Positions 39,301 through 64,000 of a stretch of 64,000 bases of DNA are shown here, in pieces; within the stretch, counting starts at the first letter, position 1, and the number at the start of each line of letters is the position of its first letter. The DNA is from Echinococcus granulosus. Its lineage: Eukaryota > Platyhelminthes > Cestoda > Cyclophyllidea > Taeniidae. The translations under genes were made by a program, and so were the position numbers. The DNA lies in contig NW_020170394.1 in NCBI RefSeq assembly GCF_000524195.1, positions 1,322,527-1,386,526 on the forward strand, in the 5' to 3' direction. Below the pieces are notes generated by a model. That model worked only from the letters and a program-made list of their open reading frames with translations, was not told where the DNA came from and did no database searches.

Positions 39301-40636
39301 GCTGGTTAATCCAAGCTCCCACTACGCAGCCGACGCTTTGTTTCTTTGTAATAAATACTACTTTGAGTGATGTTTGCACTTTTAAGCTCCAACCTTGAAC
39401 AGTTCACCTCCAATACACTGACCGCATCTTCTTTTAAGCGCTGCCATTCCGTCGGGTCTTTATATACCCTTCCCAGCCAACGCATTGCAACTGATGGTTC
39501 ATGTCGGTGCCAAAGGTGGAATAGTAAGCTTTCTTTAACATTTCCATTCATACCATTGCACTGTCTGATCCGCTCGATACAGGAAGTTGATTTCGCCCCC
39601 AAATTTTCATTTTGTAGCCAAGTTTCGTAATTCACGCCGTTAAATGAATCCTTCGACTTTCACGTGTTTTAAAGCCACTTTCCATGCAAACGCATAACAC
39701 CATCATCGAGGCAGTCTTGTTTCGGAGCACGTAATGTATGCAATTGTTGCAGTTATGTGCCTCAATGGAGCTTATTACTATTTCAGACGTCGTTGGTATT
39801 CCTACCTCGTACTTGATTCTCCAACCTTACGAGCTAGTGTTAATCCCTCTCCTGTTGGTTCATGCACTTGTCCATCGTTTATGCTATACGTGCTGCCCGA
39901 CGTCGGTAGTGAGACAGAGTGACTGCTTCTCTCCTCAAGTATGATTGGACTACTTTCTCCTCACCTTTTGCCTCATTTCGCTCTGCAACTATTACCATTA
40001 TAAGGAGGAAGCACCACTCACTATTTCCCTGCTCTAATTTCTCACCACAGATGGTAGCAATGAGCCTTCACAAAAGCTTTCACCGCCTTGCACTATTTGA
40101 AGGCATTTCGTAGAAAGTCTCACATGCCCTAATTGCATGATGCATTTCTACTACATTGATCAATCAGTTGACTTCATTGCACCTTCCAAAAATCTCCTAG
40201 CGATATTTGGGGTTTGGTGCTGGAATAATTGATACCGAATTTTGCCACGTAGTTGCTGATATTGAAGTGAAATTGGTCAACTGTTGCATTATTCCTCGTT
40301 CGGTCTGGGTAATGCTGACTCGCCCCTTGAGTGTGAGGTCTTCTACCGACTGGATTTCTGTAGGTCAACGCACAACAGATGTCAGTGGCCCTGGGTCAGA
40401 TAGAGTTGGAGGGTCGTCGGGTGCCCCTCATGCTGAGTGGTCGCTCTCTGCCTTCCTTTCCGCCCTATGACGTGCGTCCGCGCGCCGGTGGCATGTGTAC
40501 CCACCGCTTCCTCACCTCGATGCCTGCGCAAGAGCTGTTTTTCCACTCCATGGCTGGTCGGGACGGTCTCATCGACACAGCGTGCAAGACCTCTCGCTCC
40601 GGCTACCTTCAGCGCTCCCTCATCAAACACCTCGAA
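33380..40636 (+). CDS. RNA polymerase I largest subunit, central part (N-terminus missing, 3' part beyond gap)
   Basis: POLR1A/RPA190, the catalytic subunit transcribing rRNA in the nucleolus. Ten exons join in phase: 33380-33577, 33654-33917, 34559-34795, 35612-35866, 36825-37053, 37202-37443, 38062-38439, 39056-39255, 39439-39523, 40364-40636, giving 787 residues. Landmarks are [20 protein letters not shown], then [10 protein letters not shown], then the Mg-binding [51 protein letters not shown], and the bridge-helix region [29 protein letters not shown] and GQIELEGRR are the Pol I versions rather than Pol II or III. Roughly 250-300 N-terminal residues are not found upstream. Exon 10 ends KHLE in phase 0 at a GTGAGC donor 40 bases before the gap. 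The rest of the protein lies on the minus strand after the gap. Confidence 0.93.
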
Positions 40637-40676
40637 GTGAGCTTCCTTGCTAAACAATATTCCTCCATCCCACCCT

Positions 40677-40776
40677 NNNNNNNNNNNNNNNNNNNNNNNN
40701 NNNNNNNNNNNNNNNNNNNNNNNNNNNNNNNNNNNNNNNNNNNNNNNNNNNNNNNNNNNNNNNNNNNNNNNNNNNN
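40677..40776. other. Assembly gap, exactly 100 N
   Basis: A run of exactly 100 N inside a POLR1A intron. A round number indicates a gap of unknown size between two joined contigs. Confidence 0.99.
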
Positions 40777-40906
40777 CCCATATTATCCATATCCTGAAGA
40801 ATTTTGTTTTTTTTGCAGCAGAGTTGGCTACAAATTGGACTTTATGTTTTGTCTACTCCTTATTAAATTGGTCATTTCAATTGTATTTTGCTTCAACTCG
40901 ATAATA
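40777..40906. other. Unique 130-bp segment between gap and tandem unit
   Basis: AT-rich sequence seen only once in the window. It borders the first base of tandem unit A (40907). No gene is visible in it. Confidence 0.6.
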
Positions 40907-42403
40907 TCCAAAGCAGATTACGGTAAACGCTTTGAATTTCAGTACATGATGTTACTACTTTTTTTCGTTTTATACAGGGGAGTAGGCCTTTAGGTTCTCT
41001 CCCTATACGCTAGGAAAATCGTGCTGCTTTAAGATGTATGTACGCAATAAGTCTCTGTCTGACGAGCGTACCTATATGAAGCAGCTAAAATTGGACAACT
41101 CTTTCCTCGTGGTAGTGTTTGTGGTCACGAGGAGTTACAGTGTGTTTGTTTTCAACTCTAATGCGAGTGTTAAAGTGCGAATTCGATATATTATGCTATA
41201 ATTTCAAATTAACGCATCCTTGCTGAATCACATTGGCAAGATCCCTTTTCGCATGCTCAAAGGGAGTGATACTACCAATTACTTTGGATCGTCGAGGCAG
41301 GTTTCGCAGCCTTCGTCGCGGGGCCCATCATATGAGTATTTGCACCAAATAAAGCTCCTATTTCCTTTTTGCACTATGCCTCCTATATCGTTACGGCAAA
41401 TTTGAAATCAGAATACCCGCACATTCACAGCATATTATACGGCTGTGTGATTCCTCCAGAGACTGCTCAAGACTGAAAAATAAATATTGCAATAGTAACC
41501 GCTCGATAGCATTATGACAAAGCGGTTAACGGTTTTGGTGACACTAATGGTTGTAAAAGCTATTCTAGAAGGGCAATTGATTGCATTTTGGGAGTTATTA
41601 GCACCCAACCTCTTAACACCTCAAACTGAGTGTCCATGAACACAGGGTACGAAAAGCGCCCCACGACGTCAACCATTCATTCCCTATTAAATTAATCCTT
41701 ACACCCAGACTACCTATTCCTTTGATTGCAACACCGCCCAGAGAAAATACCACTTTATAGCAAAAGGTAACGAAGAACGTTATCTATAGACCTGACCGAC
41801 GACGTTTTACTTGACAATACTTTCCCCACATGATGAGCCAGGCGAAAAAAAGGTTTGTTACCGGTGTACAGGAATGAAGATCACAGATACGACTGCAAAG
41901 CACCCTGCTAAATTGAGAGTGTAAGCAAGAGATCGAAGAATCCATGCACACCAATTAAAGCAAGCACCACCTCGGAGCATCACCCGATCTAACTATTCAA
42001 ATTTAGAAAGCACAGACGGGAAACCCCAGATGGATGCTCACTGAAATGGAGTAATTCCTCCCAGTCACTGATAGCAGAAGCAATGTAAGCGCACAATCTA
42101 GATGCAGAAACAACTGCAAAGATGGCAACTCCGAATGACGGCCTCTTGCAGGGTGTTTACAGAAGCTTGAGTTATGAGTCACCTGTTCACTTATCCCCAA
42201 ATTTAGGCCCCGGATAAACATTTCTTACTAGGCCACCTTAAACGTGCCATTCCTAAGGCCCACTATCCGAAGATGTTTATAATGAGTGTTGGACATTTGC
42301 AAGTGTTATTAACAAATTCAACTTTATCTCGTCATTACAGATTTAAGATAGGGGTGAAATTAAAATCATTTTTTTAAAAACGTGTGCCCTCGATAGTTGC
42401 TAT

Positions 42404-42409
42404 TTTAAT
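42404..42409 (-). terminator. Possible poly(A) signal of POLR1A, copy A
   Basis: ATTAAA on the gene strand about 100 bases past the stop at 42510. It is a common variant hexamer; no AATAAA was noticed nearer. The same site lies in copy B at 53951-53956. Confidence 0.3.
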
Positions 42410-42509
42410 GTACGTGTCCCTCCACCTCCTTAAGAAGTGTAAAAAAATCCATTTCCGTGCTTTACACAATCAAATCTACCACATCTTCGCAAGTACATCT
42501 TCGGTCGGG

Positions 42510-45500
42510 CTAAATTGACAGCTGGGATAAGAGGTCAAAGCAAGTAGTTCCGTAACCGCGTGTAAGCTGACCAGCGGTGAGGCTGGCGGACGGCGAAACG
42601 GTGTTTTCAACCAAATCTAAAATCGTAAAACGCACATTTTGAAAAGATGTACGTAGTTACAGAGACCTTACGATTTCGTGCTTAATATAAATGTCATATT
42701 TATGTAAACAGAATCTAAACTCCTGTGTCTACAAGATTTTTAATAGGAATCAAATGAAGGCAGGCTGTGATGGGCTCGATTCAGTTACTTGGCAAAGCCT
42801 CAGTACCCAAGAAGGTGCGTCAATATAGAAGAGCAATCAACCGAAAACACCAGGTTGATTGTTTTCCACAGGCAATTGGTTTCATAAGTTCTGGTTATGG
42901 GTATCTTTTCGAGAATACTCGTCCAAGTAATTGTTTTAGTACATTATGATCTATCGTCGCGACCATTGTTTGCAGAGGAGCCCCCGACGATAGTTTCATT
43001 TTTTATGACACCATCCTCAACGTTGCACGGAATGCCAGACAAAAAGAAAATTATATTTAATTTAAAAAATTGCCCAAAAGATGATTTTTGTTTGCCTAAA
43101 CAAATGGTACCCATAAAAGGCTTTTGTGTGTTCTAGGATTAAAATATTTAGTATCATAGCTGCGATGTAGAGGTGACTCAGGCGTGAATTCCTGACTAAA
43201 CAAAATCGCATCAAAGCCTGGACATTAGTGCCTTCAGACCATTGAATTACCCCCTGGTTGAAAACTGATATATAGTTGTGAGCAATGCCTACTTTCTTGA
43301 ATGACCGATTTGAGCACATTGGTGGCGGTTTCAAAAGTGATGCGTTGCATAGGCGAGGGGTGGAAGTCCATAGTACGTCGATTAAAGGCGCGATAAGCAC
43401 CGGTTTTGGTGAGGTAGTCTGCCACCAGCCCAAGATGACGCGAGTTCACACTGATGCCGTAGTGACTGAACACACTGGAGATTTCGCGCTGCAGAGAGGC
43501 CCGAGCCGCCTCGATACCAAAGTGAGCTTGCATCGCTGGTACGTGGTTGGTGTAGAGTCGACTGAGATCGAACACATCACCATAGCGATAGAGCACCTAA
43601 ATGGAAATATGTTATGCTGCTATTTGCCTACGATGAGTTGCATTCATTGAAGCCAAATCCTTCAGCTATTTTCAGAAGGAACCAGCAGTACCAGTCAGGA
43701 TATTAGGTATACAGTACAAATTTTTAGACGCCGAAATTTGCATTGAAAAAAGAACAAGCAACTTAAAGGAAGGATATTGTCGAAAACTATCTTAACGTGT
43801 ATTTGCACAGCAAAACATTTTCATTATTATTAACAATAGTGCTCATTTATACTAATTCAAGCGATCAAGGAAAATGACACGTTAATCTAAAGCTTACTGT
43901 TCTTGAGGTTTTCATGGCGGCGATAAAAGTAATAAGTGGAAATAAAATTCCAATTATATTAATCTTTTAAACTAGCACAAGTGATCAAACTTAAAATCCA
44001 AACAATTTAGCTATTAAGAGTCTTGACAAATTTAAAAGGCCAAAATTTTCCGAATATGAATGATGCGTTGCAGCATAGGGTAGAAGACGACAAGACTTTG
44101 GAATACTGAGCAATATAATTGTAAACATTGAGGACAACATAGGAGAGATAAAATTACATAATGTGAAAAGTCAAAATTTTCATCGGAAAGGACTCGTAGC
44201 CGGCTCATTATCTTACAGGAGTGCATTGCTAAAGTTGCACGCAAAAATGCTAACTCTCATGAATATTTCGATGTATTTTAATGTGTTTTTTCACGAAGGG
44301 AATAAAAGTACACTACCGGAAGAATTTCCTCCATTTGCTCATTATTTGTCTGAAGAAGAAAAGACACACTAATGCTAAACTTTGGTCGCATTTTTTTGAG
44401 TGAAAACAAAGCGCGGAGCCACTGGTCGCGCAGTGTGAGGGGAACTTTTAGACTCGCCAACAAAGCGATTACCGTAACGGACGCAATAAAAGCAGTGAAA
44501 ATTTTTTTTAGCAAAACGATTGGCTGGATCGCCTCACAAACAAAAATAATAGCGAAGAACAAGCATCGTTAGGAAACGCTAGCTAATTAAGCCAATCCGT
44601 TGAGCGAAATACTTCACAACCAAAAGCCAATGAAGAAACCAGTAGAACTATGAAGTCAAACAAGACCATTTCAAAACTGAAGGCTAGTGCAGTAAAAGTC
44701 ATAGTGAAGGAGAAATGAAACAGTTTTTAATCCCTTAAAAAAGATTAGCTCAGCAATTTCAGCTCGACGCTAAATTTGAGTGCTTGGGGAAGAAGTAAAG
44801 CTTCTAATGCACCACCATCCGCGGAGACAACAAATTCGACAATACAAAATTAAAAAAGTGGGTATGATAGAAAAATAACCAATAATAAGCGCACACGGTG
44901 CAATCATGAAATCTGAGGAGATGCATGATGTACAAACAGCTTAGACTAACGATCAAAGAGGTGCTTCTAAAAAAGACAAGTTTAAGATGAACATTCTACT
45001 TGTGAAGCATTGAGAGGAAACGTTAAGTTATTGAAGATGAAATATTTGCCGTCTTTAATTGAAAGTGTTTTCGATGCGTTCTAATACCGGTAGGATCAAA
45101 AAGAGATCCACAGTAGCCGTTATTGACAGACAAAAGGCATTCAAGTGCATACCTTAATATTTTCACCTTCAACACGCAGAATCCACTCCTTAGGATCAGT
45201 TTTATCAATGAAAGCTTTTCGAATATTTGGAACAAAGGAGACCACACTCTTTGAGATAATGCGTTGTACCAGAGTGCGTAAATCAATTGAGATACGACCG
45301 TCTTTGGGATCAAACATCTGAAAGAATGAGAAAACCTTAAAAACGCACTGAAAATAATGTCACCTTCGGAAAAAAGTCACTCAGATTCTCCAAAAAGCTA
45401 AAATTTTGGTTAGCAAATGATGAACTTGCACAGAAAAACTGCCCAACACAGCAGGTGATGTACGTCAAATAACAGTTCCGCCGTTCATAAGCCATAGGAT

Positions 45501-48500
45501 GATACAGAACAACTAAGCCTACAAAAGTGGCTGGCGGAAGCTACAACGATCTACTAATGCACCAAAGGAACAACGTGAAAAGTCTAATCAAGCAAGCCAT
45601 ATCGGAAAATAGTGAAAATTAAGAACCGGTTAAACATACAGATATGGTCAATTTCACCCATGACGGAGTCTCACTAGTATCGTAAGCGTAGTCAGTGAAG
45701 CGATGATGTAGACTCATTACAAACTAAAAGAGGAAAAGAATAAGAGTTCATTACCAGGCCTTTGTGGAAGGAGAAAGCTAAATAGTATTAGCCGGTAATA
45801 AGAAGCTATATAGTAAGTTAAACTAGCCAAATCATCTTGGGGTAGCCAGGATCATGAAAACATAAATGTGGAAATGTTTGGTCCTCCACTCACATTGATT
45901 CGTCTTGAGTCCATGCCCTTTGCAGAGCTCTGCGTCACCTCGACCACATCTCTGTCGAGCACAAGTTCTTCGCCATGGTCTTCATCGTCTTCCTCACCGC
46001 GTTCCAATTCGACCACCTCTGCGCCGCCGATCTCAGTGACTGGTTTGGAAACGGAAGTGGACCTCTCAGGGCACGGTTCGGCAGCAGCATTGGAGGTGGA
46101 GGGTCCAGCAACATCCTGCCATGAGTCTATCTCGTCATCACCACCGGCGGCCTCTTGGTCCTCCGATGCGGCTGCAGCTGCCTCCAAATCGACACCGATT
46201 TCACGAAGCTCCGCCACCTCATCGTCGTCCTCATCAATTGCCTCGCAGCCTGCGTTTACACCACCCTCTGCGGCTCTCTCTCCTCCAGTCTCGTCCTCGG
46301 CTTCAAGTCGACGTCTGCGCACTGCCTGTGGAGGAGGGAATTGGAGTAAGACTATGGTTTCTGCCCTTGTGGCTTAAAGTACAATTGTGTATTAATGAAC
46401 GGTGTATCAGAAGCAGTAGTAGATTACAAAACTACTGAATATTTTAAATTCTAAAACAGCAATTACGGAACCTACTTGTACTTTTTTCAAAAGATAATTG
46501 AGACCGATGAAATAAGAAAAGAAACACAATGAAGATTTCTTGGCCAATTTTGCAAGAAAAACTTTGATAATATTGTCTTATGAGGTGATTTCAAGCAAGT
46601 ATTTTGTGATTAAAAATGCATAATATGGTGATGATAGAACACAAACAATAAAAAGGTAATTACCTCCAAACATATTATAATTTGGCTAGCATAAATTACT
46701 AGTATTAATTGTTGCCCATTTTTACGTTATTGTGCCCCTTCTCAACCTCTGTGACTTGTATGGATCATTGCCCTCTCCATAACTGGACGGCACTCATAGT
46801 CGGCAATGGTACCATCTTGAGTTACTGAACGGCACTCGGCCCGCCGATTCTGATATTTCCCTTTGTTCCTTATGAGATTGGTTGCCCAGCTGGCTGCAAG
46901 TTTTCCGCTTGTCTTTAACCTCTGCACAGTCAGAACCGCAAAACAACGCTGGATCGAATAAACGCGGCTCCCTACCTGAGGTATTTTCTGGCGGATTCCA
47001 TGGGTTTAAGCTAACGAGACTAATTTACTGCAGTAACATATGGGTAACAACGCAAAGTTATCCTATGTTTCAAGCTGCGATTTCAAAAGGGCAGACAGAT
47101 GTTTTTTAATGGTGTAATACTTAAGTTGTCATTTTTTGGGAAATGGACAAAGGTCCAAATGTTAACCATAAAATCTTTTAGTACCTTTTCGCAACTTTCG
47201 CTAAAATGGACAAGTAGTGGGATATAATTTCGTGGTTTTTTTATCCTTAAGTAACTTGCAAAATCCAAAACCCCAAAAAACCCAACGTTAAATTTTATAC
47301 AGAAAACCGTTGAATTCTTATAGAAGCCCAAATTAACTTCTACTTCTTTTTCAAATGAATCACGCCTCGTGATATACTCGCCATATCAGAAGACGGGCCA
47401 CTTTCTAAGTGCATCTCACGACACCAGAAACGGAGTACTAGAAGATGGAAGCATGCTTACCTCCGCTCCGTCGTCCTCACCCCACTCATCGCGACCTGTT
47501 GTCCGACGTTCATCGTTCGCGTCGCCTCCATCCATTCCCTCTGCCTGTTGCTGTTGCTGACGTGCCAACGCCTTCAGGTTAAATGTTGCAATCTCGCTGA
47601 ATGGATACAGGCACAAAATTAATATTTTTACTACGTGCTTTCGAAGTCAAAACTACTGCAAATTTACGAAGCTTTATGGCCACCTTGGATGGTCGCATGA
47701 ATATCTGATGAGAAATTTACTAATTTAGACAGACTTTCAAGAAGCCCACAAGGGCACAAATATCATAGTTCATATAGAATTACACCACTAATCCCAAGGA
47801 TGGCCGGAAGCCTCCATTGCATGGTCAAAATAATCGTAATCGTAATACCAAAGATCAGATGCAATGATACTTGATTCAAAATAATTTTGCAATATTATTC
47901 CATAAATAATTAGGATTAAACCATATTTGGAGAAAAAACCGCAACTCTCTAGTAGGAAAGAAAAACAGTGCAAAAAAGGTGAAGTGGTTTATGTGCATGC
48001 ATGAAACTAATTTCCAAAGCTGTAAAGGCTTCTAGTCAGGCTTGTTGTATGGCATCTGGAGGCGGTGCGGCGTGGTAGCAGAACGAATTGCCCGGTACTA
48101 GTTCAAACAAACAATAGGATTTGAATCAGTCCAAGTTACGTGCACCATACTTAGGAAGATCCTCTATTCGCTACATCAGTGGGGACTTAAATGTAGCCAT
48201 CAATAAAAATAATTTAAAAATAACTAGCCAAAGAAGTAACTGAAAATAATGTTTAGGGTTATGCTGACGAAAGAATTCGTCTATATCTGCATCGATTGCA
48301 AGCGGGAAGTTGTGGAAGCTGCTAAGGCAGCAAGTCTCACTCTCATCTACTAACACATGACAACAAGTTTTCAAAAAGTCAACTTGTCCCTCACCCCTTT
48401 CACACACATTATAAAACTCGCCGGGCACTATAAATTACTGGCTGATTGGCCCGTGATGAGAAATGCCTTTTGCGCCCTTATCTCAATGCTTGTTGGAGGC

Positions 48501-51500
48501 GCGGACATAGCGTCGGTTATCTTCAAACTTCTAAGGTAAACCCCATCTTACTCCCACAACACTGCTTTGTGTGCGTATGTATGCCTTGCTAAGGGTCGAA
48601 CAATCACAATTGAGATTCACTTTGGTGAAACTACCCGCTGCAACTCGCGGGTGTGCAATAAAACCTTCCTATTGAGAAACAGCCCAGGACCAGCCAATCA
48701 GTTGGAAAAAGTCCCCATTCCCACAAGTCGACGCAGGACCTTATGCCGCAAAACTATCCGTGGAAGTTACACTGTTAGGACGAAAGGAGGTAGAAAAGCA
48801 CTGCCTCGTCATTACTCGCCGCATTCTGTTGCCATTTCTTCAAGTGATGGTTCTATTTTCTCTGCACTGGCATTAGACAATTACGTACAAAGTAAAATAG
48901 ATTTGGGGATTAAAAGTGTAATTAAAACGTGGATGGCCAGGGGTGGTTTTTTGCTTCTAGAGAGAAAACGCCTTGGGAATGTGGGATTCGCAAGCCTGTA
49001 TTGCCCTGAGAAATGAAAACGGATCTTAACTTGTCAATAACGACTACTTTAAGAAATAAAGTATTTATCAAAGCTTCTCGCTGAAGGCTAATGTTATTTA
49101 TAAAAACCTTGCGGACTTATCTGACTACCTTACAGATGAAAGTTTATAATAAAATTACGCTGCGTTGCATTAATTCAACGCCGCTACGGTGAATAAGAAG
49201 TAGCAATTCAGAGACACTTCTAGGCGCCTCCCTGTGAATAAAACTAATTTCCTAACAAATGATCTGGATACATCATGCAGTCAACCTGCTTTGCAAGAGA
49301 CTAGTCAGCCAAGTGATATATTTAAGAAGTCCGCGGAACAACTTGAAGAGACTTCAAGTAGCAAAAAAAAAGTGAATATGCATGGGACATGGAGCCACAC
49401 CACCACAAACAGCCCATCTGGGGAGGTAAACCATTCCCATTAAAAACGAGCAGTGAAAAGCTCACATTTGAAGGAAGTTATTAAAGCAGTGATCTCCACT
49501 ATCCCTACACCGAATTCAAAATTAAAGCGAGGCGCACCTTGATTTGCATTGATCTTTGAGCTCTTGCGTCAGGCGTTTGCTCAAGTCGACGAAGAGAACG
49601 CGCTCAAAAAAGTGAATGATGCGACGGGCACCGACATTAGTGCGCGACTGGTATGACGAGGGAGGCAGAAGATTAAAAGTGAGCGAACATGAGTCCGACG
49701 AGTAGTCAACCTCCATGCTGAGGGGCAATTTGATAACCTGCAAACGCATCAATAATGCATAAATGGTGATTTACCGATTGTGTCACAAACGAGCTAATAT
49801 ATTCAACGCTACTTATTCCATTTACAATGCAGAAAATTCAATCCTCGAATTTACAAGATATGAACCAATTCAAAGATGACAATCTCTGTGGAAGTATGCA
49901 AGAAATTAGTGATCAAACCAATTGAAATGAGAAATATAAAGCTCCAGGCCATCCCCGAAGACGTAATGAGGCATATCGGGATGAATGAATGAAATACTAC
50001 GGCAGTAAGGTGGGGAAGTTAAAACAAAGAGCCCTCTGTGATAGGAAACCACCCAAACTTATGAATGACTACCATTGATGTAAAAAAACGCTCGCACATG
50101 GGCCTAAGGGCTAGCAAGCCTAGACGGATAGCTCACCTCAGCAAGACGCAACCTGTACATCTCACGGGCAATGTGCTCAGCCCTGGATTTGGCCCCGGAA
50201 GTGGGTAGAATAGGCACCTCCATGCAGGGTGTGGCGATAACCGCAGAACCGGACATCAGCACCTCCCGAAGGCGAGGAATGCCCAGAGTGACGTTCATTT
50301 CACCACGACCAGCAAAGTGGAAGGTATTTAGCGTCATCTGGGTAGAGGGCTCACCCACTGACTGGGCCGCTAATAGACCCACTGGCTCTCCAGGCGGAAC
50401 CTACAGAAAGTGCGCTCGTGAGATTTCTGCAAATCAAAGTGAGTGAGGGAGCATCCACGCAAACCGCACCTCATGGTAGAATGACAGTTAAAACTTAGGA
50501 TGGTGTGGAACATCTTTTTCTGCGCCAAACGCAAAACTGAAATTGAATTAATCTAGTCGTCTCCAATGGCCATATACACTGCACTGTTGAGCTCACTAAA
50601 ATTGCCATGATAAAACAATTGTTTGCAATGAGCACACAATAGCAATATAACAAGCAAGTGAAAAATATCGGTGTCGCTTAAAGACTTGCCTGTCCCTGTG
50701 TAATTTTGGCTGTGACAATGGTTCGTAGATCCGCCGCCATAGTACAGGGAGGTTCCGAAAGAGTGCTCAAAGATGCAGTTTCGGTGAGTTTTCGCTGAGC
50801 ACGATCCCTGCGCTTCTTTAAGTGGGCCAACTTCTTGGCGCTAAGCGATGTCTGTAAGATCTACAAAAGGAAGTCCGCTTTGCAATGAAAAGGAAAGGCC
50901 TCTCGTTAATACCTTGCATCTAAAATGCGAGCTTCGATTACGCGATGGAATACAAGATGACTATCATAACCACCATACTAATTGTAACTTGTACCCGATG
51001 AAAATGTAAATCGAGTGCTTGTTAGAAAAGAGTTCATGGTTTGGTAGTAAATAACGCTGGAGGGAACAATAGTAAATGGTAGATAACAGATTGGCGGTGA
51101 GAACATTAGCAGCCATCGTGCAATTGCGTGATGAGCAGTGATGAAAAACCCCCTCCCAAAAGAGTGATCGGCCTAAATTGTGGAGTCGTTTCCCTTTCAG
51201 GAAGCCAAATTTTCACCAATTCATGTCAATTAAGGAATCCAGTTATATACTGTTTTCAAACTAAAACACTCGAGAAAGCGAATTTGTTAAAAATAATAGA
51301 ACAACTATCGAACCACATTTAAACGCAGCCACAACAAGGTGAAGCCAAAGTCAAAGGAGTAACTTAACTAATCGCATCCCGTAAATTACACAAGTGTTAA
51401 AGGCGCTTTAAAATTTAAAGCATCATAGTAGTTCCAGCAGAGAGTTCCAACATGAAAATTCGTTAAAGGATACTCACAGTGAGTCGTTTGACGGCCACTT

Positions 51501-51744
51501 CATCTACCTTTCGAGCAAGTTCCGGAGAGAGGGGATTTTGCTCGGTCAGTTTGCGGTAGAGCTCAGGATCTAAGGGGCAACGCCAACGCTCTGCCAGCAG
51601 TTCTGCATTCTCTGCAAAGAAATGGAAGCCCTCAGGCTTCAGAAAAGTCGATTGGCAGACGTCAAGGCCATCGTCACCGTAGCGAAACTGGATCACCGAA
51701 CCACCAGAGTCGCGAACCGTTCCATCGTACTGTACGGAGAGGTC
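42510..51744 (-). CDS. RNA polymerase I largest subunit, C-terminal part, copy A
   Basis: Nine minus-strand exons in phase: 51744-51478, 50860-50690, 50400-50137, 49737-49538, 47596-47461, 46325-45894, 45317-45153, 43596-43293, 42616-42510, giving 681 residues and a real stop (TAG, 42512-42510). They start [19 protein letters not shown], directly continuing KHLE of the plus-strand part. The trigger-loop region is [20 protein letters not shown] with [18 protein letters not shown]. An acidic, alanine-rich stretch fills the exon 46325-45894. The cleft-closing C-terminus has [26 protein letters not shown] and, in the last exon, [11 protein letters not shown]. One intron uses a GC donor (CAG/GCAAGT at 50689). 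No N-terminal half adjoins this copy on the same strand. Confidence 0.92.
48594..49016 (+). CDS. Unrecognised frame inside a POLR1A intron, opposite strand (copy A)
   Basis: A plus-strand frame of about 140 codons following CTTGCTAAG and ending TGA at 49014-49016, inside the POLR1A intron 47597-49537. It is basic ([20 protein letters not shown]) and ends with a short hydrophobic stretch ([14 protein letters not shown]). An upstream frame (to 48538, donor AAG/GTAAAC) would not join in phase. No family is recognised; it may be a nested gene, a decayed insertion or chance. Confidence 0.2.
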   Translation, partial: GRTITIEIHFGETTRCNSRVCNKTFLLRNSPGPANQLEKVPIPTSRRRTLCRKTIRGSYTVRTKGGRKALPRHYSPHSVAISSSDGSIFSALALDNYVQSKIDLGIKSVIKTWMARGGFLLLERKRLGNVGFASLYCPEK

Positions 51745-54056
51745 CTTTTACAGATAGCAAAGAACATTTAATCACCTTCCTTGCACCAATACTGATCTAA
51801 GGATTTATCAGCTAGAAACCAACTTAAGGTCACGTATGATTGTTTTACTCCACGTTAGTACTAAAAGGTAGGGCATACTACCCGTAAAAATACGATAAGA
51901 ACCGCGCTGGAACAAAATGACCAAGAATATCTTATGGCAAAGTGATGCGACTGGGTTCAAATCATCAGCACAAATCTAGCAATATTTTTAGCCAAAAAAT
52001 AATTCCATGAATGGTAAAAAAGTGAGTGACAAGCCGGGTTAACATATGAATATGATGTTCAATGATGCGTAAAGGAGAATCAGATACCAACATTTTCAGC
52101 TAATAAAAGGTACTTAGAGGTGAAAGTAGCAGTGAAATAAATTTTTAAAAAACCAACTACCAAAGCTGCTTAGATTAGTTGAGGCCCCAAAAAAAACCCG
52201 AATAAACCATTACAAGCGTGGTGAGACAAAAAGCATCAAAAAGAAATGATAAAGTAAGACCTGGTTCAAACTATCAAAACAATTTTTTCCAAAAACGAAA
52301 TTCAAGGATTGCAAAAGAACGCAGTATATTCATCTGAAGAGGTGTACTTGCCTCTACGGGCGTCAATCAAAACATTACCAAAAAAACGCTACCCATGACC
52401 GTAATGAGGGAGACTACAACTGGGTGCTTTCAACAAATGCCTATGGAATGCAGTCCAAAGCAGATTACGGTAAACGCTTTGAATTTCAGTACATGATGTT
52501 ACTACTTTTTTTCGTTTTATACAGGGGAGTAGGCCTTTAGGTTCTCTCCCTATACGCTAGGAAAATCGTGCTGCTTTAAGATGTATGTACGCAATAAGTC
52601 TCTGTCTGACGAGCGTACCTATATGAAGCAGCTAAAATTGGACAACTCTTTCCTCGTGGTAGTGTTTGTGGTCACGAGGAGTTACAGTGTGTTTGTTTTC
52701 AACTCTAATGCGAGTGTTAAAGTGCGAATTCGATATATTATGCTATAATTTCAAATTAACGCATCCTTGCTGAATCACATTGGCAAGATCCCTTTTCGCA
52801 TGCTCAAAGGGAGTGATACTACCAATTACTTTGGATCGTCGAGGCAGGTTTCGCAGCCTTCGTCGCGGGGCCCATCATATGAGTATTTGCACCAAATAAA
52901 GCTCCTATTTCCTTTTTGCACTATGCCTCCTATATCGTTACGGCAAATTTGAAATCAGAATACCCGCACATTCACAGCATATTATACGGCTGTGTGATTC
53001 CTCCAGAGACTGCTCAAGACTGAAAAATAAATATTGCAATAGTAACCGCTCGATAGCATTATGACAAAGCGGTTAACGGTTTTGGTGACACTAATGGTTG
53101 TAAAAGCTATTCTAGAAGGGCAATTGATTGCATTTTGGGAGTTATTAGCACCCAACCTCTTAACACCTCAAACTGAGTGTCCATGAACACAGGGTACGAA
53201 AAGCGCCCCACGACGTCAACCATTCATTCCCTATTAAATTAATCCTTACACCCAGACTACCTATTCCTTTGATTGCAACACCGCCCAGAGAAAATACCAC
53301 TTTATAGCAAAAGGTAACGAAGAACGTTATCTATAGACCTGACCGACGACGTTTTACTTGACAATACTTTCCCCACATGATGAGCCAGGCGAAAAAAAGG
53401 TTTGTTACCGGTGTACAGGAATGAAGATCACAGATACGACTGCAAAGCACCCTGCTAAATTGAGAGTGTAAGCAAGAGATCGAAGAATCCATGCACACCA
53501 ATTAAAGCAAGCACCACCTCGGAGCATCACCCGATCTAACTATTCAAATTTAGAAAGCACAGACGGGAAACCCCAGATGGATGCTCACTGAAATGGAGTA
53601 ATTCCTCCCAGTCACTGATAGCAGAAGCAATGTAAGCGCACAATCTAGATGCAGAAACAACTGCAAAGATGGCAACTCCGAATGACGGCCTCTTGCAGGG
53701 TGTTTACAGAAGCTTGAGTTATGAGTCACCTGTTCACTTATCCCCAAATTTAGGCCCCGGATAAACATTTCTTACTAGGCCACCTTAAACGTGCCATTCC
53801 TAAGGCCCACTATCCGAAGATGTTTATAATGAGTGTTGGACATTTGCAAGTGTTATTAACAAATTCAACTTTATCTCGTCATTACAGATTTAAGATAGGG
53901 GTGAAATTAAAATCATTTTTTTAAAAACGTGTGCCCTCGATAGTTGCTATTTTAATGTACGTGTCCCTCCACCTCCTTAAGAAGTGTAAAAAAATCCATT
54001 TCCGTGCTTTACACAATCAAATCTACCACATCTTCGCAAGTACATCTTCGGTCGGG

Positions 54057-57000
54057 CTAAATTGACAGCTGGGATAAGAGGTCAAAGCAAGTAGTTCCGT
54101 AACCGCGTGTAAGCTGACCAGCGGTGAGGCTGGCGGACGGCGAAACGGTGTTTTCAACCAAATCTAAAATCGTAAAACGCACATTTTGAAAAGATGTACG
54201 TAGTTACAGAGACCTTACGATTTCGTGCTTAATATAAATGTCATATTTATGTAAACAGAATCTAAACTCCTGTGTCTACAAGATTTTTAATAGGAATCAA
54301 ATGAAGGCAGGCTGTGATGGGCTCGATTCAGTTACTTGGCAAAGCCTCAGTACCCAAGAAGGTGCGTCAATATAGAAGAGCAATCAACCGAAAACACCAG
54401 GTTGATTGTTTTCCACAGGCAATTGGTTTCATAAGTTCTGGTTATGGGTATCTTTTCGAGAATACTCGTCCAAGTAATTGTTTTAGTACATTATGATCTA
54501 TCGTCGCGACCATTGTTTGCAGAGGAGCCCCCGACGATAGTTTCATTTTTTATGACACCATCCTCAACGTTGCACGGAATGCCAGACAAAAAGAAAATTA
54601 TATTTAATTTAAAAAATTGCCCAAAAGATGATTTTTGTTTGCCTAAACAAATGGTACCCATAAAAGGCTTTTGTGTGTTCTAGGATTAAAATATTTAGTA
54701 TCATAGCTGCGATGTAGAGGTGACTCAGGCGTGAATTCCTGACTAAACAAAATCGCATCAAAGCCTGGACATTAGTGCCTTCAGACCATTGAATTACCCC
54801 CTGGTTGAAAACTGATATATAGTTGTGAGCAATGCCTACTTTCTTGAATGACCGATTTGAGCACATTGGTGGCGGTTTCAAAAGTGATGCGTTGCATAGG
54901 CGAGGGGTGGAAGTCCATAGTACGTCGATTAAAGGCGCGATAAGCACCGGTTTTGGTGAGGTAGTCTGCCACCAGCCCAAGATGACGCGAGTTCACACTG
55001 ATGCCGTAGTGACTGAACACACTGGAGATTTCGCGCTGCAGAGAGGCCCGAGCCGCCTCGATACCAAAGTGAGCTTGCATCGCTGGTACGTGGTTGGTGT
55101 AGAGTCGACTGAGATCGAACACATCACCATAGCGATAGAGCACCTAAATGGAAATATGTTATGCTGCTATTTGCCTACGATGAGTTGCATTCATTGAAGC
55201 CAAATCCTTCAGCTATTTTCAGAAGGAACCAGCAGTACCAGTCAGGATATTAGGTATACAGTACAAATTTTTAGACGCCGAAATTTGCATTGAAAAAAGA
55301 ACAAGCAACTTAAAGGAAGGATATTGTCGAAAACTATCTTAACGTGTATTTGCACAGCAAAACATTTTCATTATTATTAACAATAGTGCTCATTTATACT
55401 AATTCAAGCGATCAAGGAAAATGACACGTTAATCTAAAGCTTACTGTTCTTGAGGTTTTCATGGCGGCGATAAAAGTAATAAGTGGAAATAAAATTCCAA
55501 TTATATTAATCTTTTAAACTAGCACAAGTGATCAAACTTAAAATCCAAACAATTTAGCTATTAAGAGTCTTGACAAATTTAAAAGGCCAAAATTTTCCGA
55601 ATATGAATGATGCGTTGCAGCATAGGGTAGAAGACGACAAGACTTTGGAATACTGAGCAATATAATTGTAAACATTGAGGACAACATAGGAGAGATAAAA
55701 TTACATAATGTGAAAAGTCAAAATTTTCATCGGAAAGGACTCGTAGCCGGCTCATTATCTTACAGGAGTGCATTGCTAAAGTTGCACGCAAAAATGCTAA
55801 CTCTCATGAATATTTCGATGTATTTTAATGTGTTTTTTCACGAAGGGAATAAAAGTACACTACCGGAAGAATTTCCTCCATTTGCTCATTATTTGTCTGA
55901 AGAAGAAAAGACACACTAATGCTAAACTTTGGTCGCATTTTTTTGAGTGAAAACAAAGCGCGGAGCCACTGGTCGCGCAGTGTGAGGGGAACTTTTAGAC
56001 TCGCCAACAAAGCGATTACCGTAACGGACGCAATAAAAGCAGTGAAAATTTTTTTTAGCAAAACGATTGGCTGGATCGCCTCACAAACAAAAATAATAGC
56101 GAAGAACAAGCATCGTTAGGAAACGCTAGCTAATTAAGCCAATCCGTTGAGCGAAATACTTCACAACCAAAAGCCAATGAAGAAACCAGTAGAACTATGA
56201 AGTCAAACAAGACCATTTCAAAACTGAAGGCTAGTGCAGTAAAAGTCATAGTGAAGGAGAAATGAAACAGTTTTTAATCCCTTAAAAAAGATTAGCTCAG
56301 CAATTTCAGCTCGACGCTAAATTTGAGTGCTTGGGGAAGAAGTAAAGCTTCTAATGCACCACCATCCGCGGAGACAACAAATTCGACAATACAAAATTAA
56401 AAAAGTGGGTATGATAGAAAAATAACCAATAATAAGCGCACACGGTGCAATCATGAAATCTGAGGAGATGCATGATGTACAAACAGCTTAGACTAACGAT
56501 CAAAGAGGTGCTTCTAAAAAAGACAAGTTTAAGATGAACATTCTACTTGTGAAGCATTGAGAGGAAACGTTAAGTTATTGAAGATGAAATATTTGCCGTC
56601 TTTAATTGAAAGTGTTTTCGATGCGTTCTAATACCGGTAGGATCAAAAAGAGATCCACAGTAGCCGTTATTGACAGACAAAAGGCATTCAAGTGCATACC
56701 TTAATATTTTCACCTTCAACACGCAGAATCCACTCCTTAGGATCAGTTTTATCAATGAAAGCTTTTCGAATATTTGGAACAAAGGAGACCACACTCTTTG
56801 AGATAATGCGTTGTACCAGAGTGCGTAAATCAATTGAGATACGACCGTCTTTGGGATCAAACATCTGAAAGAATGAGAAAACCTTAAAAACGCACTGAAA
56901 ATAATGTCACCTTCGGAAAAAAGTCACTCAGATTCTCCAAAAAGCTAAAATTTTGGTTAGCAAATGATGAACTTGCACAGAAAAACTGCCCAACACAGCA

Positions 57001-60000
57001 GGTGATGTACGTCAAATAACAGTTCCGCCGTTCATAAGCCATAGGATGATACAGAACAACTAAGCCTACAAAAGTGGCTGGCGGAAGCTACAACGATCTA
57101 CTAATGCACCAAAGGAACAACGTGAAAAGTCTAATCAAGCAAGCCATATCGGAAAATAGTGAAAATTAAGAACCGGTTAAACATACAGATATGGTCAATT
57201 TCACCCATGACGGAGTCTCACTAGTATCGTAAGCGTAGTCAGTGAAGCGATGATGTAGACTCATTACAAACTAAAAGAGGAAAAGAATAAGAGTTCATTA
57301 CCAGGCCTTTGTGGAAGGAGAAAGCTAAATAGTATTAGCCGGTAATAAGAAGCTATATAGTAAGTTAAACTAGCCAAATCATCTTGGGGTAGCCAGGATC
57401 ATGAAAACATAAATGTGGAAATGTTTGGTCCTCCACTCACATTGATTCGTCTTGAGTCCATGCCCTTTGCAGAGCTCTGCGTCACCTCGACCACATCTCT
57501 GTCGAGCACAAGTTCTTCGCCATGGTCTTCATCGTCTTCCTCACCGCGTTCCAATTCGACCACCTCTGCGCCGCCGATCTCAGTGACTGGTTTGGAAACG
57601 GAAGTGGACCTCTCAGGGCACGGTTCGGCAGCAGCATTGGAGGTGGAGGGTCCAGCAACATCCTGCCATGAGTCTATCTCGTCATCACCACCGGCGGCCT
57701 CTTGGTCCTCCGATGCGGCTGCAGCTGCCTCCAAATCGACACCGATTTCACGAAGCTCCGCCACCTCATCGTCGTCCTCATCAATTGCCTCGCAGCCTGC
57801 GTTTACACCACCCTCTGCGGCTCTCTCTCCTCCAGTCTCGTCCTCGGCTTCAAGTCGACGTCTGCGCACTGCCTGTGGAGGAGGGAATTGGAGTAAGACT
57901 ATGGTTTCTGCCCTTGTGGCTTAAAGTACAATTGTGTATTAATGAACGGTGTATCAGAAGCAGTAGTAGATTACAAAACTACTGAATATTTTAAATTCTA
58001 AAACAGCAATTACGGAACCTACTTGTACTTTTTTCAAAAGATAATTGAGACCGATGAAATAAGAAAAGAAACACAATGAAGATTTCTTGGCCAATTTTGC
58101 AAGAAAAACTTTGATAATATTGTCTTATGAGGTGATTTCAAGCAAGTATTTTGTGATTAAAAATGCATAATATGGTGATGATAGAACACAAACAATAAAA
58201 AGGTAATTACCTCCAAACATATTATAATTTGGCTAGCATAAATTACTAGTATTAATTGTTGCCCATTTTTACGTTATTGTGCCCCTTCTCAACCTCTGTG
58301 ACTTGTATGGATCATTGCCCTCTCCATAACTGGACGGCACTCATAGTCGGCAATGGTACCATCTTGAGTTACTGAACGGCACTCGGCCCGCCGATTCTGA
58401 TATTTCCCTTTGTTCCTTATGAGATTGGTTGCCCAGCTGGCTGCAAGTTTTCCGCTTGTCTTTAACCTCTGCACAGTCAGAACCGCAAAACAACGCTGGA
58501 TCGAATAAACGCGGCTCCCTACCTGAGGTATTTTCTGGCGGATTCCATGGGTTTAAGCTAACGAGACTAATTTACTGCAGTAACATATGGGTAACAACGC
58601 AAAGTTATCCTATGTTTCAAGCTGCGATTTCAAAAGGGCAGACAGATGTTTTTTAATGGTGTAATACTTAAGTTGTCATTTTTTGGGAAATGGACAAAGG
58701 TCCAAATGTTAACCATAAAATCTTTTAGTACCTTTTCGCAACTTTCGCTAAAATGGACAAGTAGTGGGATATAATTTCGTGGTTTTTTTATCCTTAAGTA
58801 ACTTGCAAAATCCAAAACCCCAAAAAACCCAACGTTAAATTTTATACAGAAAACCGTTGAATTCTTATAGAAGCCCAAATTAACTTCTACTTCTTTTTCA
58901 AATGAATCACGCCTCGTGATATACTCGCCATATCAGAAGACGGGCCACTTTCTAAGTGCATCTCACGACACCAGAAACGGAGTACTAGAAGATGGAAGCA
59001 TGCTTACCTCCGCTCCGTCGTCCTCACCCCACTCATCGCGACCTGTTGTCCGACGTTCATCGTTCGCGTCGCCTCCATCCATTCCCTCTGCCTGTTGCTG
59101 TTGCTGACGTGCCAACGCCTTCAGGTTAAATGTTGCAATCTCGCTGAATGGATACAGGCACAAAATTAATATTTTTACTACGTGCTTTCGAAGTCAAAAC
59201 TACTGCAAATTTACGAAGCTTTATGGCCACCTTGGATGGTCGCATGAATATCTGATGAGAAATTTACTAATTTAGACAGACTTTCAAGAAGCCCACAAGG
59301 GCACAAATATCATAGTTCATATAGAATTACACCACTAATCCCAAGGATGGCCGGAAGCCTCCATTGCATGGTCAAAATAATCGTAATCGTAATACCAAAG
59401 ATCAGATGCAATGATACTTGATTCAAAATAATTTTGCAATATTATTCCATAAATAATTAGGATTAAACCATATTTGGAGAAAAAACCGCAACTCTCTAGT
59501 AGGAAAGAAAAACAGTGCAAAAAAGGTGAAGTGGTTTATGTGCATGCATGAAACTAATTTCCAAAGCTGTAAAGGCTTCTAGTCAGGCTTGTTGTATGGC
59601 ATCTGGAGGCGGTGCGGCGTGGTAGCAGAACGAATTGCCCGGTACTAGTTCAAACAAACAATAGGATTTGAATCAGTCCAAGTTACGTGCACCATACTTA
59701 GGAAGATCCTCTATTCGCTACATCAGTGGGGACTTAAATGTAGCCATCAATAAAAATAATTTAAAAATAACTAGCCAAAGAAGTAACTGAAAATAATGTT
59801 TAGGGTTATGCTGACGAAAGAATTCGTCTATATCTGCATCGATTGCAAGCGGGAAGTTGTGGAAGCTGCTAAGGCAGCAAGTCTCACTCTCATCTACTAA
59901 CACATGACAACAAGTTTTCAAAAAGTCAACTTGTCCCTCACCCCTTTCACACACATTATAAAACTCGCCGGGCACTATAAATTACTGGCTGATTGGCCCG

Positions 60001-63000
60001 TGATGAGAAATGCCTTTTGCGCCCTTATCTCAATGCTTGTTGGAGGCGCGGACATAGCGTCGGTTATCTTCAAACTTCTAAGGTAAACCCCATCTTACTC
60101 CCACAACACTGCTTTGTGTGCGTATGTATGCCTTGCTAAGGGTCGAACAATCACAATTGAGATTCACTTTGGTGAAACTACCCGCTGCAACTCGCGGGTG
60201 TGCAATAAAACCTTCCTATTGAGAAACAGCCCAGGACCAGCCAATCAGTTGGAAAAAGTCCCCATTCCCACAAGTCGACGCAGGACCTTATGCCGCAAAA
60301 CTATCCGTGGAAGTTACACTGTTAGGACGAAAGGAGGTAGAAAAGCACTGCCTCGTCATTACTCGCCGCATTCTGTTGCCATTTCTTCAAGTGATGGTTC
60401 TATTTTCTCTGCACTGGCATTAGACAATTACGTACAAAGTAAAATAGATTTGGGGATTAAAAGTGTAATTAAAACGTGGATGGCCAGGGGTGGTTTTTTG
60501 CTTCTAGAGAGAAAACGCCTTGGGAATGTGGGATTCGCAAGCCTGTATTGCCCTGAGAAATGAAAACGGATCTTAACTTGTCAATAACGACTACTTTAAG
60601 AAATAAAGTATTTATCAAAGCTTCTCGCTGAAGGCTAATGTTATTTATAAAAACCTTGCGGACTTATCTGACTACCTTACAGATGAAAGTTTATAATAAA
60701 ATTACGCTGCGTTGCATTAATTCAACGCCGCTACGGTGAATAAGAAGTAGCAATTCAGAGACACTTCTAGGCGCCTCCCTGTGAATAAAACTAATTTCCT
60801 AACAAATGATCTGGATACATCATGCAGTCAACCTGCTTTGCAAGAGACTAGTCAGCCAAGTGATATATTTAAGAAGTCCGCGGAACAACTTGAAGAGACT
60901 TCAAGTAGCAAAAAAAAAGTGAATATGCATGGGACATGGAGCCACACCACCACAAACAGCCCATCTGGGGAGGTAAACCATTCCCATTAAAAACGAGCAG
61001 TGAAAAGCTCACATTTGAAGGAAGTTATTAAAGCAGTGATCTCCACTATCCCTACACCGAATTCAAAATTAAAGCGAGGCGCACCTTGATTTGCATTGAT
61101 CTTTGAGCTCTTGCGTCAGGCGTTTGCTCAAGTCGACGAAGAGAACGCGCTCAAAAAAGTGAATGATGCGACGGGCACCGACATTAGTGCGCGACTGGTA
61201 TGACGAGGGAGGCAGAAGATTAAAAGTGAGCGAACATGAGTCCGACGAGTAGTCAACCTCCATGCTGAGGGGCAATTTGATAACCTGCAAACGCATCAAT
61301 AATGCATAAATGGTGATTTACCGATTGTGTCACAAACGAGCTAATATATTCAACGCTACTTATTCCATTTACAATGCAGAAAATTCAATCCTCGAATTTA
61401 CAAGATATGAACCAATTCAAAGATGACAATCTCTGTGGAAGTATGCAAGAAATTAGTGATCAAACCAATTGAAATGAGAAATATAAAGCTCCAGGCCATC
61501 CCCGAAGACGTAATGAGGCATATCGGGATGAATGAATGAAATACTACGGCAGTAAGGTGGGGAAGTTAAAACAAAGAGCCCTCTGTGATAGGAAACCACC
61601 CAAACTTATGAATGACTACCATTGATGTAAAAAAACGCTCGCACATGGGCCTAAGGGCTAGCAAGCCTAGACGGATAGCTCACCTCAGCAAGACGCAACC
61701 TGTACATCTCACGGGCAATGTGCTCAGCCCTGGATTTGGCCCCGGAAGTGGGTAGAATAGGCACCTCCATGCAGGGTGTGGCGATAACCGCAGAACCGGA
61801 CATCAGCACCTCCCGAAGGCGAGGAATGCCCAGAGTGACGTTCATTTCACCACGACCAGCAAAGTGGAAGGTATTTAGCGTCATCTGGGTAGAGGGCTCA
61901 CCCACTGACTGGGCCGCTAATAGACCCACTGGCTCTCCAGGCGGAACCTACAGAAAGTGCGCTCGTGAGATTTCTGCAAATCAAAGTGAGTGAGGGAGCA
62001 TCCACGCAAACCGCACCTCATGGTAGAATGACAGTTAAAACTTAGGATGGTGTGGAACATCTTTTTCTGCGCCAAACGCAAAACTGAAATTGAATTAATC
62101 TAGTCGTCTCCAATGGCCATATACACTGCACTGTTGAGCTCACTAAAATTGCCATGATAAAACAATTGTTTGCAATGAGCACACAATAGCAATATAACAA
62201 GCAAGTGAAAAATATCGGTGTCGCTTAAAGACTTGCCTGTCCCTGTGTAATTTTGGCTGTGACAATGGTTCGTAGATCCGCCGCCATAGTACAGGGAGGT
62301 TCCGAAAGAGTGCTCAAAGATGCAGTTTCGGTGAGTTTTCGCTGAGCACGATCCCTGCGCTTCTTTAAGTGGGCCAACTTCTTGGCGCTAAGCGATGTCT
62401 GTAAGATCTACAAAAGGAAGTCCGCTTTGCAATGAAAAGGAAAGGCCTCTCGTTAATACCTTGCATCTAAAATGCGAGCTTCGATTACGCGATGGAATAC
62501 AAGATGACTATCATAACCACCATACTAATTGTAACTTGTACCCGATGAAAATGTAAATCGAGTGCTTGTTAGAAAAGAGTTCATGGTTTGGTAGTAAATA
62601 ACGCTGGAGGGAACAATAGTAAATGGTAGATAACAGATTGGCGGTGAGAACATTAGCAGCCATCGTGCAATTGCGTGATGAGCAGTGATGAAAAACCCCC
62701 TCCCAAAAGAGTGATCGGCCTAAATTGTGGAGTCGTTTCCCTTTCAGGAAGCCAAATTTTCACCAATTCATGTCAATTAAGGAATCCAGTTATATACTGT
62801 TTTCAAACTAAAACACTCGAGAAAGCGAATTTGTTAAAAATAATAGAACAACTATCGAACCACATTTAAACGCAGCCACAACAAGGTGAAGCCAAAGTCA
62901 AAGGAGTAACTTAACTAATCGCATCCCGTAAATTACACAAGTGTTAAAGGCGCTTTAAAATTTAAAGCATCATAGTAGTTCCAGCAGAGAGTTCCAACAT

Positions 63001-63291
63001 GAAAATTCGTTAAAGGATACTCACAGTGAGTCGTTTGACGGCCACTTCATCTACCTTTCGAGCAAGTTCCGGAGAGAGGGGATTTTGCTCGGTCAGTTTG
63101 CGGTAGAGCTCAGGATCTAAGGGGCAACGCCAACGCTCTGCCAGCAGTTCTGCATTCTCTGCAAAGAAATGGAAGCCCTCAGGCTTCAGAAAAGTCGATT
63201 GGCAGACGTCAAGGCCATCGTCACCGTAGCGAAACTGGATCACCGAACCACCAGAGTCGCGAACCGTTCCATCGTACTGTACGGAGAGGTC
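54057..63291 (-). CDS. RNA polymerase I largest subunit, C-terminal part, copy B
   Basis: Identical to copy A at +11,547: exons 63291-63025, 62407-62237, 61947-61684, 61284-61085, 59143-59008, 57872-57441, 56864-56700, 55143-54840, 54163-54057. If the sequence after the gap is reverse-complemented, this copy comes first after the plus-strand exon ending at 40636 and would complete the gene with an intron of at least about 750 bp plus the gap. The copy is intact; nothing marks it as a pseudogene. Confidence 0.92.
60141..60563 (+). CDS. Unrecognised frame inside a POLR1A intron, opposite strand (copy B)
   Basis: Identical repeat of the frame at 48594-49016, offset by 11,547; the same doubts apply. 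Confidence 0.2.
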   Translation, partial: GRTITIEIHFGETTRCNSRVCNKTFLLRNSPGPANQLEKVPIPTSRRRTLCRKTIRGSYTVRTKGGRKALPRHYSPHSVAISSSDGSIFSALALDNYVQSKIDLGIKSVIKTWMARGGFLLLERKRLGNVGFASLYCPEK

Positions 63292-64000
63292 CTTTTACAG
63301 ATAGCAAAGAACATTTAATCACCTTCCTTGCACCAATACTGATCTAAGGATTTATCAGCTAGAAACCAACTTAAGGTCACGTATGATTGTTTTACTCCAC
63401 GTTAGTACTAAAAGGTAGGGCATACTACCCGTAAAAATACGATAAGAACCGCGCTGGAACAAAATGACCAAGAATATCTTATGGCAAAGTGATGCGACTG
63501 GGTTCAAATCATCAGCACAAATCTAGCAATATTTTTAGCCAAAAAATAATTCCATGAATGGTAAAAAAGTGAGTGACAAGCCGGGTTAACATATGAATAT
63601 GATGTTCAATGATGCGTAAAGGAGAATCAGATACCAACATTTTCAGCTAATAAAAGGTACTTAGAGGTGAAAGTAGCAGTGAAATAAATTTTTAAAAAAC
63701 CAACTACCAAAGCTGCTTAGATTAGTTGAGGCCCCAAAAAAAACCCGAATAAACCATTACAAGCGTGGTGAGACAAAAAGCATCAAAAAGAAATGATAAA
63801 GTAAGACCTGGTTCAAACTATCAAAACAATTTTTTCCAAAAACGAAATTCAAGGATTGCAAAAGAACGCAGTATATTCATCTGAAGAGGTGTACTTGCCT
63901 CTACGGGCGTCAATCAAAACATTACCAAAAAAACGCTACCCATGACCGTAATGAGGGAGACTACAACTGGGTGCTTTCAACAAATGCCTATGGAATGCAG

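What the first reader, a model, noticed from the sequence alone, without database searches (positions are those of the whole stretch)
40364..64000. POLR1A is split across a gap onto opposite strands, yet the exon junction is perfect: the scaffold after the gap is inverted
The plus-strand exon 40364-40636 ends ...KHLE in phase 0 at GTGAGC. The minus-strand exon starting at 63291 (or 51744) follows an acceptor AAAAG and opens in phase 0 with [13 protein letters not shown], which is what the RNA polymerase I family has next. All nineteen exons keep phase through this join. A real animal gene cannot continue on the other strand, so reverse-complementing 40777-64000 is the simplest repair. Any annotation of this scaffold will show two broken genes.
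Basis: partly seen in the sequence, partly recalled or inferred. Interest (0 to 1): 0.75.

Follow-up and report, generated by a model that had tools for sequence, protein, structure and literature searches.

The report
Tapeworm RNA polymerase gene scrambled by assembly
One ordinary tapeworm gene, the largest subunit of RNA polymerase I, is most likely broken into three pieces by errors in the genome assembly, one piece being back to front and present twice, so this is a data-quality problem and probably not biology.

Summary
POLR1A exons run on the + strand up to 40636 and continue in phase 0 on the - strand at 63291 (identically at 51744). In a relative, Echinococcus multilocularis, the protein is continuous across this join. 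"Inverted component" is the best reading of that join, but it is incomplete in three ways.
(1) The component 40777-64000 is 130 bp plus two head-to-tail copies of an 11,547-bp unit that are 100% identical. Each holds all ten 3' exons and the stop codon, so flipping the component leaves a spare 3' half.
(2) The first four exons lie on another scaffold, C270, at the edge of a 30,541-bp run of N. That edge shares a 14-mer with window 33240-33253, so 33239|33240 looks like a misjoin without Ns.
(3) The displaced sequence (30,647 bp without Ns) has about the size of that C270 gap.
The 24 exons spell one open 1,758-aa protein, identical to E. multilocularis RPA1 at 1596 of 1607 residues. No second complete gene was found, though the C270 gap cannot be searched.
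Verdict: assembly artefact, low interest. Whether the tandem copy is real is open, because the gap size fits two copies better than one.

The parts
29317..30879 (+). Thioredoxin-domain gene (protein disulphide isomerase type), the last gene that I recognised on the original side of scaffold C259 before the suspected misjoin
   Evidence: Two open stretches match Pfam Thioredoxin, 1.1e-16 and 1.2e-23; frames. The name PDI is inferred from two thioredoxin domains; the exact ends are approximate.
33240..33253 (+). 14-mer shared with the edge of the 30,541-bp N run on C270; suspected misjoin without Ns at 33239|33240
   Evidence: Two places in the genome: here and C270:292208-292221(-); the reversed control pattern also had one hit. 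Local alignment score reached by 0 of 200 shuffles with one scoring and 3 of 200 with a looser one; without the 14-mer, 198 of 200 shuffles score as high.
33420..40636 (+). POLR1A middle exons, 10 exons: 33420-33577, 33654-33917, 34559-34795, 35612-35866, 36825-37053, 37202-37443, 38062-38439, 39056-39255, 39439-39523, 40364-40636
   Evidence: 770 of 773 residues identical to E. multilocularis RPA1 residues 126-898
40677..40776 (.). Assembly gap of 100 N
   Evidence: two other 100-N gaps seen in the part of C270 that I read
40777..40906 (.). 130 bp of single-copy sequence before the first copy of the repeated unit
   Evidence: In a search with 40777-42500, bases 1-130 match once in the genome and 131-1724 twice
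40907..52453 (-). First copy, in + strand order, of the 11,547-bp unit, with the second set of ten POLR1A 3' exons (51744 down to 42513)
   Evidence: 100% identical over 11,547 bp to 52454-64000, no mismatch or gap; exons equal the other copy's minus 11,547
52454..64000 (-). Second copy of the unit; ends exactly at the scaffold end. Ten POLR1A 3' exons: 63291-63025, 62407-62237 (GC donor), 61947-61684, 61284-61085, 59143-59008, 57872-57441, 57270-57187, 56864-56700, 55143-54840, 54163-54060; stop TAG 54059-54057
   Evidence: 702 of 709 residues identical to E. multilocularis RPA1 residues 899-1607, its C-terminus; scaffold ends at 1386526 = window 64000

Best explanation
This is one ordinary, intron-rich POLR1A gene of an Echinococcus tapeworm, damaged by assembly. 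The true order is most likely: C270 exons 1-4 (- strand), then window 33240-40676, then the reverse complement of 40777-64000, and then on to an AP-endonuclease-like gene on C270. The middle and 3' pieces ended up at the end of C259 and not on C270, where a 30,541-bp N run stands in their place. The first join was made at a 14-bp overlap without Ns. The 3' component was added across a 100-N gap in the wrong orientation. It also contains one unit written out twice, as happens when an assembler walks a looped node twice. Shown: the exon layout, phases, exact duplication, exact end at the scaffold end, the 14-bp overlap, and the absence of another Pol I gene in the searchable assembly. Inferred: that the faults are computational, and the order in which they arose.
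For: The 24 exons from the three places concatenate to 1,758 aa with 0 stops. They match E. multilocularis RPA1 (a 17.6-Mb record) at 1596 of 1607 residues with no gap, and Mesocestoides corti RPA1 at 1387 of 1751. The C270|window intron is phase 1 and comes out at 122 + 180 - 14 bp; the window join is phase 0. Of 9 PF04998 matches, 5 are on C259, and 1 on C272 and 3 on C263 belong to Pol II and Pol III-like genes; of 6 PF04997 matches, the only Pol I one is on C270. DNA searches agree: middle exon 1 place, 3' exon 2 places, C270 exons 1 place. The 14-mer is found at just these two places. The 30,541-bp N run compares with 30,647 bp of displaced sequence (arithmetic).
Against: No reads, map or transcript could be examined. 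A real, recent duplication or translocation would give the same consensus. The 14-bp overlap is short: about 0.8 chance hits of a 14-mer are expected in a genome of this size (my arithmetic), and the reversed control had 1 hit, so its weight comes from its place at both edges; with a looser scoring 3 of 200 shuffles reach the alignment. No end-to-end overlap supports the other joins (10 of 10 end pairs without one of 4 bp or more). The N run on C270 could be a stretch withheld by the operators and not an assembly gap. The gap size fits two copies of the unit (30,647 bp) and not one (19,100 bp), which speaks against a purely artefactual second copy if the gap was sized independently.
Confidence: 0.78

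Rival explanations
1. A genuine rearranged partial duplication. The intact gene sits in the C270 gap, and the end of C259 carries a second, recent copy of the middle and 3' exons with a true inversion and tandem duplication. The assembler collapsed the copies and left Ns on C270.
For: The 33240 boundary has two different left neighbours (C270 and the thioredoxin-gene side), as at the edge of a duplicated segment; the 3' unit is written twice; the N run on C270 has about the size of the displaced piece.
Against: The middle exon tested is found once in the assembly, although a collapsed copy would look the same. The two units have 0 differences in 11,547 bp, as expected if one consensus was written twice. 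The unit ends exactly at the scaffold end. The coding pieces fit into one gene with nothing left over except the second unit.
Confidence: 0.13
2. The inversion and misjoin are artefacts, but the 11,547-bp tandem duplication of the 3' half of POLR1A is real. It would be a 3' copy without the gene's own start, downstream of the gene. (A variant of the best explanation, not exclusive with it.)
For: 30,541 bp of gap against 30,647 bp with two units and 19,100 bp with one (arithmetic). A real tandem repeat would also explain why the contig broke there.
Against: 100% identity and the exact stop at the scaffold end are what double traversal of one node gives; how the gap was sized is unknown; E. multilocularis has a single 3' half in its predicted protein, which does not exclude a separate copy beside it.
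Confidence: 0.35
3. The gene is truly split and its mRNA is made by trans-splicing of separate transcripts from two or three loci on both strands.
For: Parasitic flatworms carry out spliced-leader trans-splicing (opening of the abstract of PMC12582326 in a search listing); the exon ends are splice sites of the normal kind.
Against: Relatives have one continuous predicted protein across both breaks: E. multilocularis, Taenia crassiceps and M. corti. Both breaks coincide with N runs. Spliced-leader splicing adds a short leader and does not join two coding halves (recalled).
Confidence: 0.01
4. Simple inversion of 40777-64000 only, with the rest of C259 correct.
For: Phase-0 join and a single break explained.
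Against: The N-terminal exons are on C270 and none was seen in the window between the thioredoxin gene and 33420; the second unit is unexplained.
Confidence: 0.07

Closest known systems
POLR1A / RPA1, largest subunit of RNA polymerase I (E. multilocularis protein P0001; human in PDB 7vba, 7ob9)
   Same: Same domains in the same order; 1596 of 1607 residues identical to the E. multilocularis protein, with no gap across either break
   Different: Here the exons lie at three places and on two strands of the assembly; the E. multilocularis prediction lacks the first 151 residues that are found here on C270
Scaffolding errors: wrongly oriented small terminal component, misjoin, false duplication
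   Same: 100-N gap, a small component at a scaffold end, an exact repeat ending at the contig end, relatives colinear. A paper on false gene duplications in assemblies (PMC9516828) was seen only as a search listing with the opening of its abstract.
   Different: Three faults fall on one gene, and the gap on C270 has nearly the size of the displaced sequence
Split genes joined by trans-splicing (for example mod(mdg4) in Drosophila; recalled, no call)
   Same: Exons of one mRNA on opposite strands
   Different: Relatives encode the gene in one piece and both breaks sit on assembly edges

Membership tests
POLR1A / RPA1 | Rpb1 domains 1, 2, 4 and 5 present | tested here: met
   PF04997 on C270; PF00623, PF05000 and PF04998 in the window exons. 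Domain 3 (PF04983) was not scanned for here; it is listed for the relatives.
POLR1A / RPA1 | Closer to Pol I than to Pol II or Pol III largest subunits | tested here: met
   Best PDB hits of a rough concatenated model are Pol I chains, 852 bits against 493 for the best Pol II and 438 for Pol III; the genome's other two genes score best with Pol II (C272, 891 bits against 180 for Pol I) or, among eukaryotic chains, with Pol III (C263)
POLR1A / RPA1 | Full-length open frame | tested here: met
   1,758 aa, 0 stops, only when three separate places are read in the inferred order
Inverted scaffold component | Colinear gene in relatives, strand switch exactly at a gap | tested here: met
Inverted scaffold component | Read or map evidence against the present orientation | not testable with these tools
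   No reads, Hi-C or optical map available
False duplication | Copies identical, and no extra read depth | tested here: inconclusive
   Identity 11,547 of 11,547; depth not available
Trans-spliced split gene | Loci truly separate in the genome and the two halves joined in RNA | not testable with these tools
   No RNA data; relatives are colinear in their predicted proteins

The most novel reading that the evidence does not exclude
The end of scaffold C259 is a real, very recent rearranged copy of most of POLR1A (partly inverted, its 3' half in tandem), while an intact gene sits in the C270 gap: a young segmental duplication of a core transcription gene in a tapeworm.
Probability: 0.13. Interest if true: 0.35.

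Novelty: not a real feature. Interest (0 to 1): 0.14.

Why it matters
For users of this assembly: POLR1A is probably not missing or broken in the worm. One scaffold end should be checked for moving and turning, and the apparent duplication of the 3' half should not be counted until read depth is checked. It also shows that gene colinearity with a relative can reveal a join without Ns that a gap list would miss.

Tried and rejected
Looked for the missing 5' exons of POLR1A upstream of 33420 in the window: none seen by eye in the three-frame translations of 30900-33700. They are on C270. A first query from that locus was a piece on the wrong strand and gave 0 hits.

Looked for sequence overlap between the other loose ends (left contig end, both ends of the 3' component, both edges of the C270 gap): no exact end-to-end overlap of 4 bp or more in 10 of 10 pairs. 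So the 40676 join and the C270 far edge are not confirmed by overlap.

Looked for which published assembly this is: '272 scaffolds' with Echinococcus gave 0 papers; two wider searches were read as listings only. From PMC8894454 (passages) I take that earlier E. granulosus assemblies were short-read and that one was scaffolded on E. multilocularis; from PMC5327563 (passages) only that the E. canadensis assembly used ABACAS among other tools. The species is not settled beyond genus Echinococcus, by protein identity. That reference-guided tools can leave both 100-N and sized gaps is recalled. The Nature 2013 tapeworm genome paper is not held.

Looked for half-length Echinococcus RPA1 proteins in public sets: none so named among the 120 listed of 792 hits. 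Clustering at 90% identity and missing names may hide them.

The tandem repeat finder gave 0 rows, because its longest period is 500 bp; the 11.5-kb repeat was found by self-BLAST.

Early script models were imperfect: one search gave a wrong frame for the later + strand exons, corrected; the C270 part failed and was done. The concatenated query was a rough model lacking some exons.
Full report
What was claimed. A POLR1A gene runs on the + strand to a gap at 40677-40776 and continues on the - strand beyond it with a perfect exon junction; the scaffold after the gap is inverted.

The observation. It holds. The only N run is 40677-40776. Exon 40364-40636 ends KHLE in phase 0; the - strand exon at 63291 opens [15 protein letters not shown] in phase 0 after an AG. 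The joined peptide aligns to human Pol I RPA1 without a gap at the join, E = 5.7e-55. In Pfam RNA_pol_Rpb1_5 the two exons meet at profile positions 40|41, the second one weakly (E = 0.0017, below the cut-off).

Positions 40907-52453 and 52454-64000 are identical over 11,547 bp. The window end is the scaffold end, so the component after the gap is 130 bp plus exactly two units. Each unit holds ten exons, from DLSVQ to the stop codon. Flipping the component therefore gives a complete 3' part followed by a second one. A contig that stops exactly at a repeat boundary, with no difference between the copies, is what an assembler writes when it walks one consensus node twice (inference). It does not tell whether the genome has one copy or two.

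The + strand exons begin, after a split codon, at residue 277 of the 1,758-residue protein. A genome search with PF04997 found a Pol I N-terminus on scaffold C270 (- strand, 293079-293336), besides hits on C272 and C263. C272 is the Pol II gene (891 bits to RPB1 chains, 180 to the best Pol I chain). Two pieces from C263 match Pol III RPC1 best among eukaryotic chains, and Pol I weakly or not at all. C270 carries four exons, 293375 down to 292329, and then runs into an N run of 30,541 bp, 261666-292206. The last bases before the Ns contain TAACGATTCGCCAG, which is also at window 33240-33253; these are its only two places in the genome, with 1 hit for the reversed control. The local alignment score was reached by 0 of 200 shuffles with one scoring and by 3 of 200 with a looser one; without the 14-mer there is no similarity (198 of 200 shuffles as high). 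The first window exon starts at 33420. So the intron is 122 bp on C270 plus 180 bp in the window, less the overlap, and its phase (1) fits. The window has no Ns there: 33239|33240 is probably a misjoin, with a thioredoxin-domain gene at 29.3-30.9 kb on the other side. Window 31000-33400 occurs once in the genome.

The gene as a whole. Four exons on C270, ten at 33420-40636 and ten at 63291-54060 translate to 1,758 aa with 0 stops. Identity to E. multilocularis RPA1 is 1596 of 1607 residues without a gap (the reference lacks the first 151), to Taenia crassiceps 1428 of 1619, and to Mesocestoides corti 1387 of 1751. The E. multilocularis and T. crassiceps proteins come from records of 17.6 and 14.4 Mb. 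Against E. multilocularis no residue is missing or repeated at either join.

No second gene found. The middle exon occurs once, the 3' exon twice, both in this component, and the C270 exons once. PF04998 gave 9 matches: 5 on C259, 3 on C263, 1 on C272. PF04997 gave 6: 2 on C272, 3 on C263, 1 on C270. The C270 N run itself cannot be searched.

Where the pieces belong. On C270 the far side of the N run has frames that I read as an AP-endonuclease-like gene in the same direction as POLR1A. Pfam support is weak: one of two pieces gave 0.0055, below the family's cut-off, and the other matched nothing. The displaced sequence (33254-40676 plus 40777-64000) is 30,647 bp; the N run is 30,541 bp. With a single unit it would be 19,100 bp. 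In the 80 kb of C270 that I read there are two further gaps, each 100 bp, and none in C259:1292527-1322526. So the 30,541-bp run is unusual. It may be sized by a map or a reference, or it may be a withheld stretch. If it was sized independently, it favours two units.

Rivals. A real rearranged duplication at the end of C259 cannot be excluded without reads; I give it 0.13. A real tandem duplication within an otherwise misassembled locus is more likely, about 0.35, and is compatible with the main explanation. Trans-splicing of a split gene is about 0.01, because relatives have the protein in one piece and both breaks lie at N runs.

Verdict. The finding is most likely an assembly artefact on an ordinary housekeeping gene. 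Interest is low; the practical value is in correcting the assembly and not counting the second 3' half as a duplicated gene before depth is checked.

Noticed in passing
G000:C270:261666-292206: A 30,541-bp N run directly after POLR1A exon 4, about the size of the sequence displaced to the end of C259
   Followed up: partly
window 1499-1694 and 2063-2255; C270 about 293771-294993: Dispersed repeat of about 200 bp: two inverted copies in the window, 86% alike, and copies 79-90% alike to them upstream of POLR1A on C270
   Followed up: no
L005, G000:C272:332680-334467: The Pol II largest-subunit gene on C272 lies here in an open frame of 1,736 codons, in contrast to the 24-exon POLR1A
   Followed up: partly
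window 62237 (and 50690): GC-AG intron in POLR1A (exon 62407-62237) among GT-AG introns
   Followed up: no
P0001 (E. multilocularis RPA1): The public prediction starts at a methionine 151 residues downstream of the start inferred here from C270, so its first exons are probably missing
   Followed up: partly
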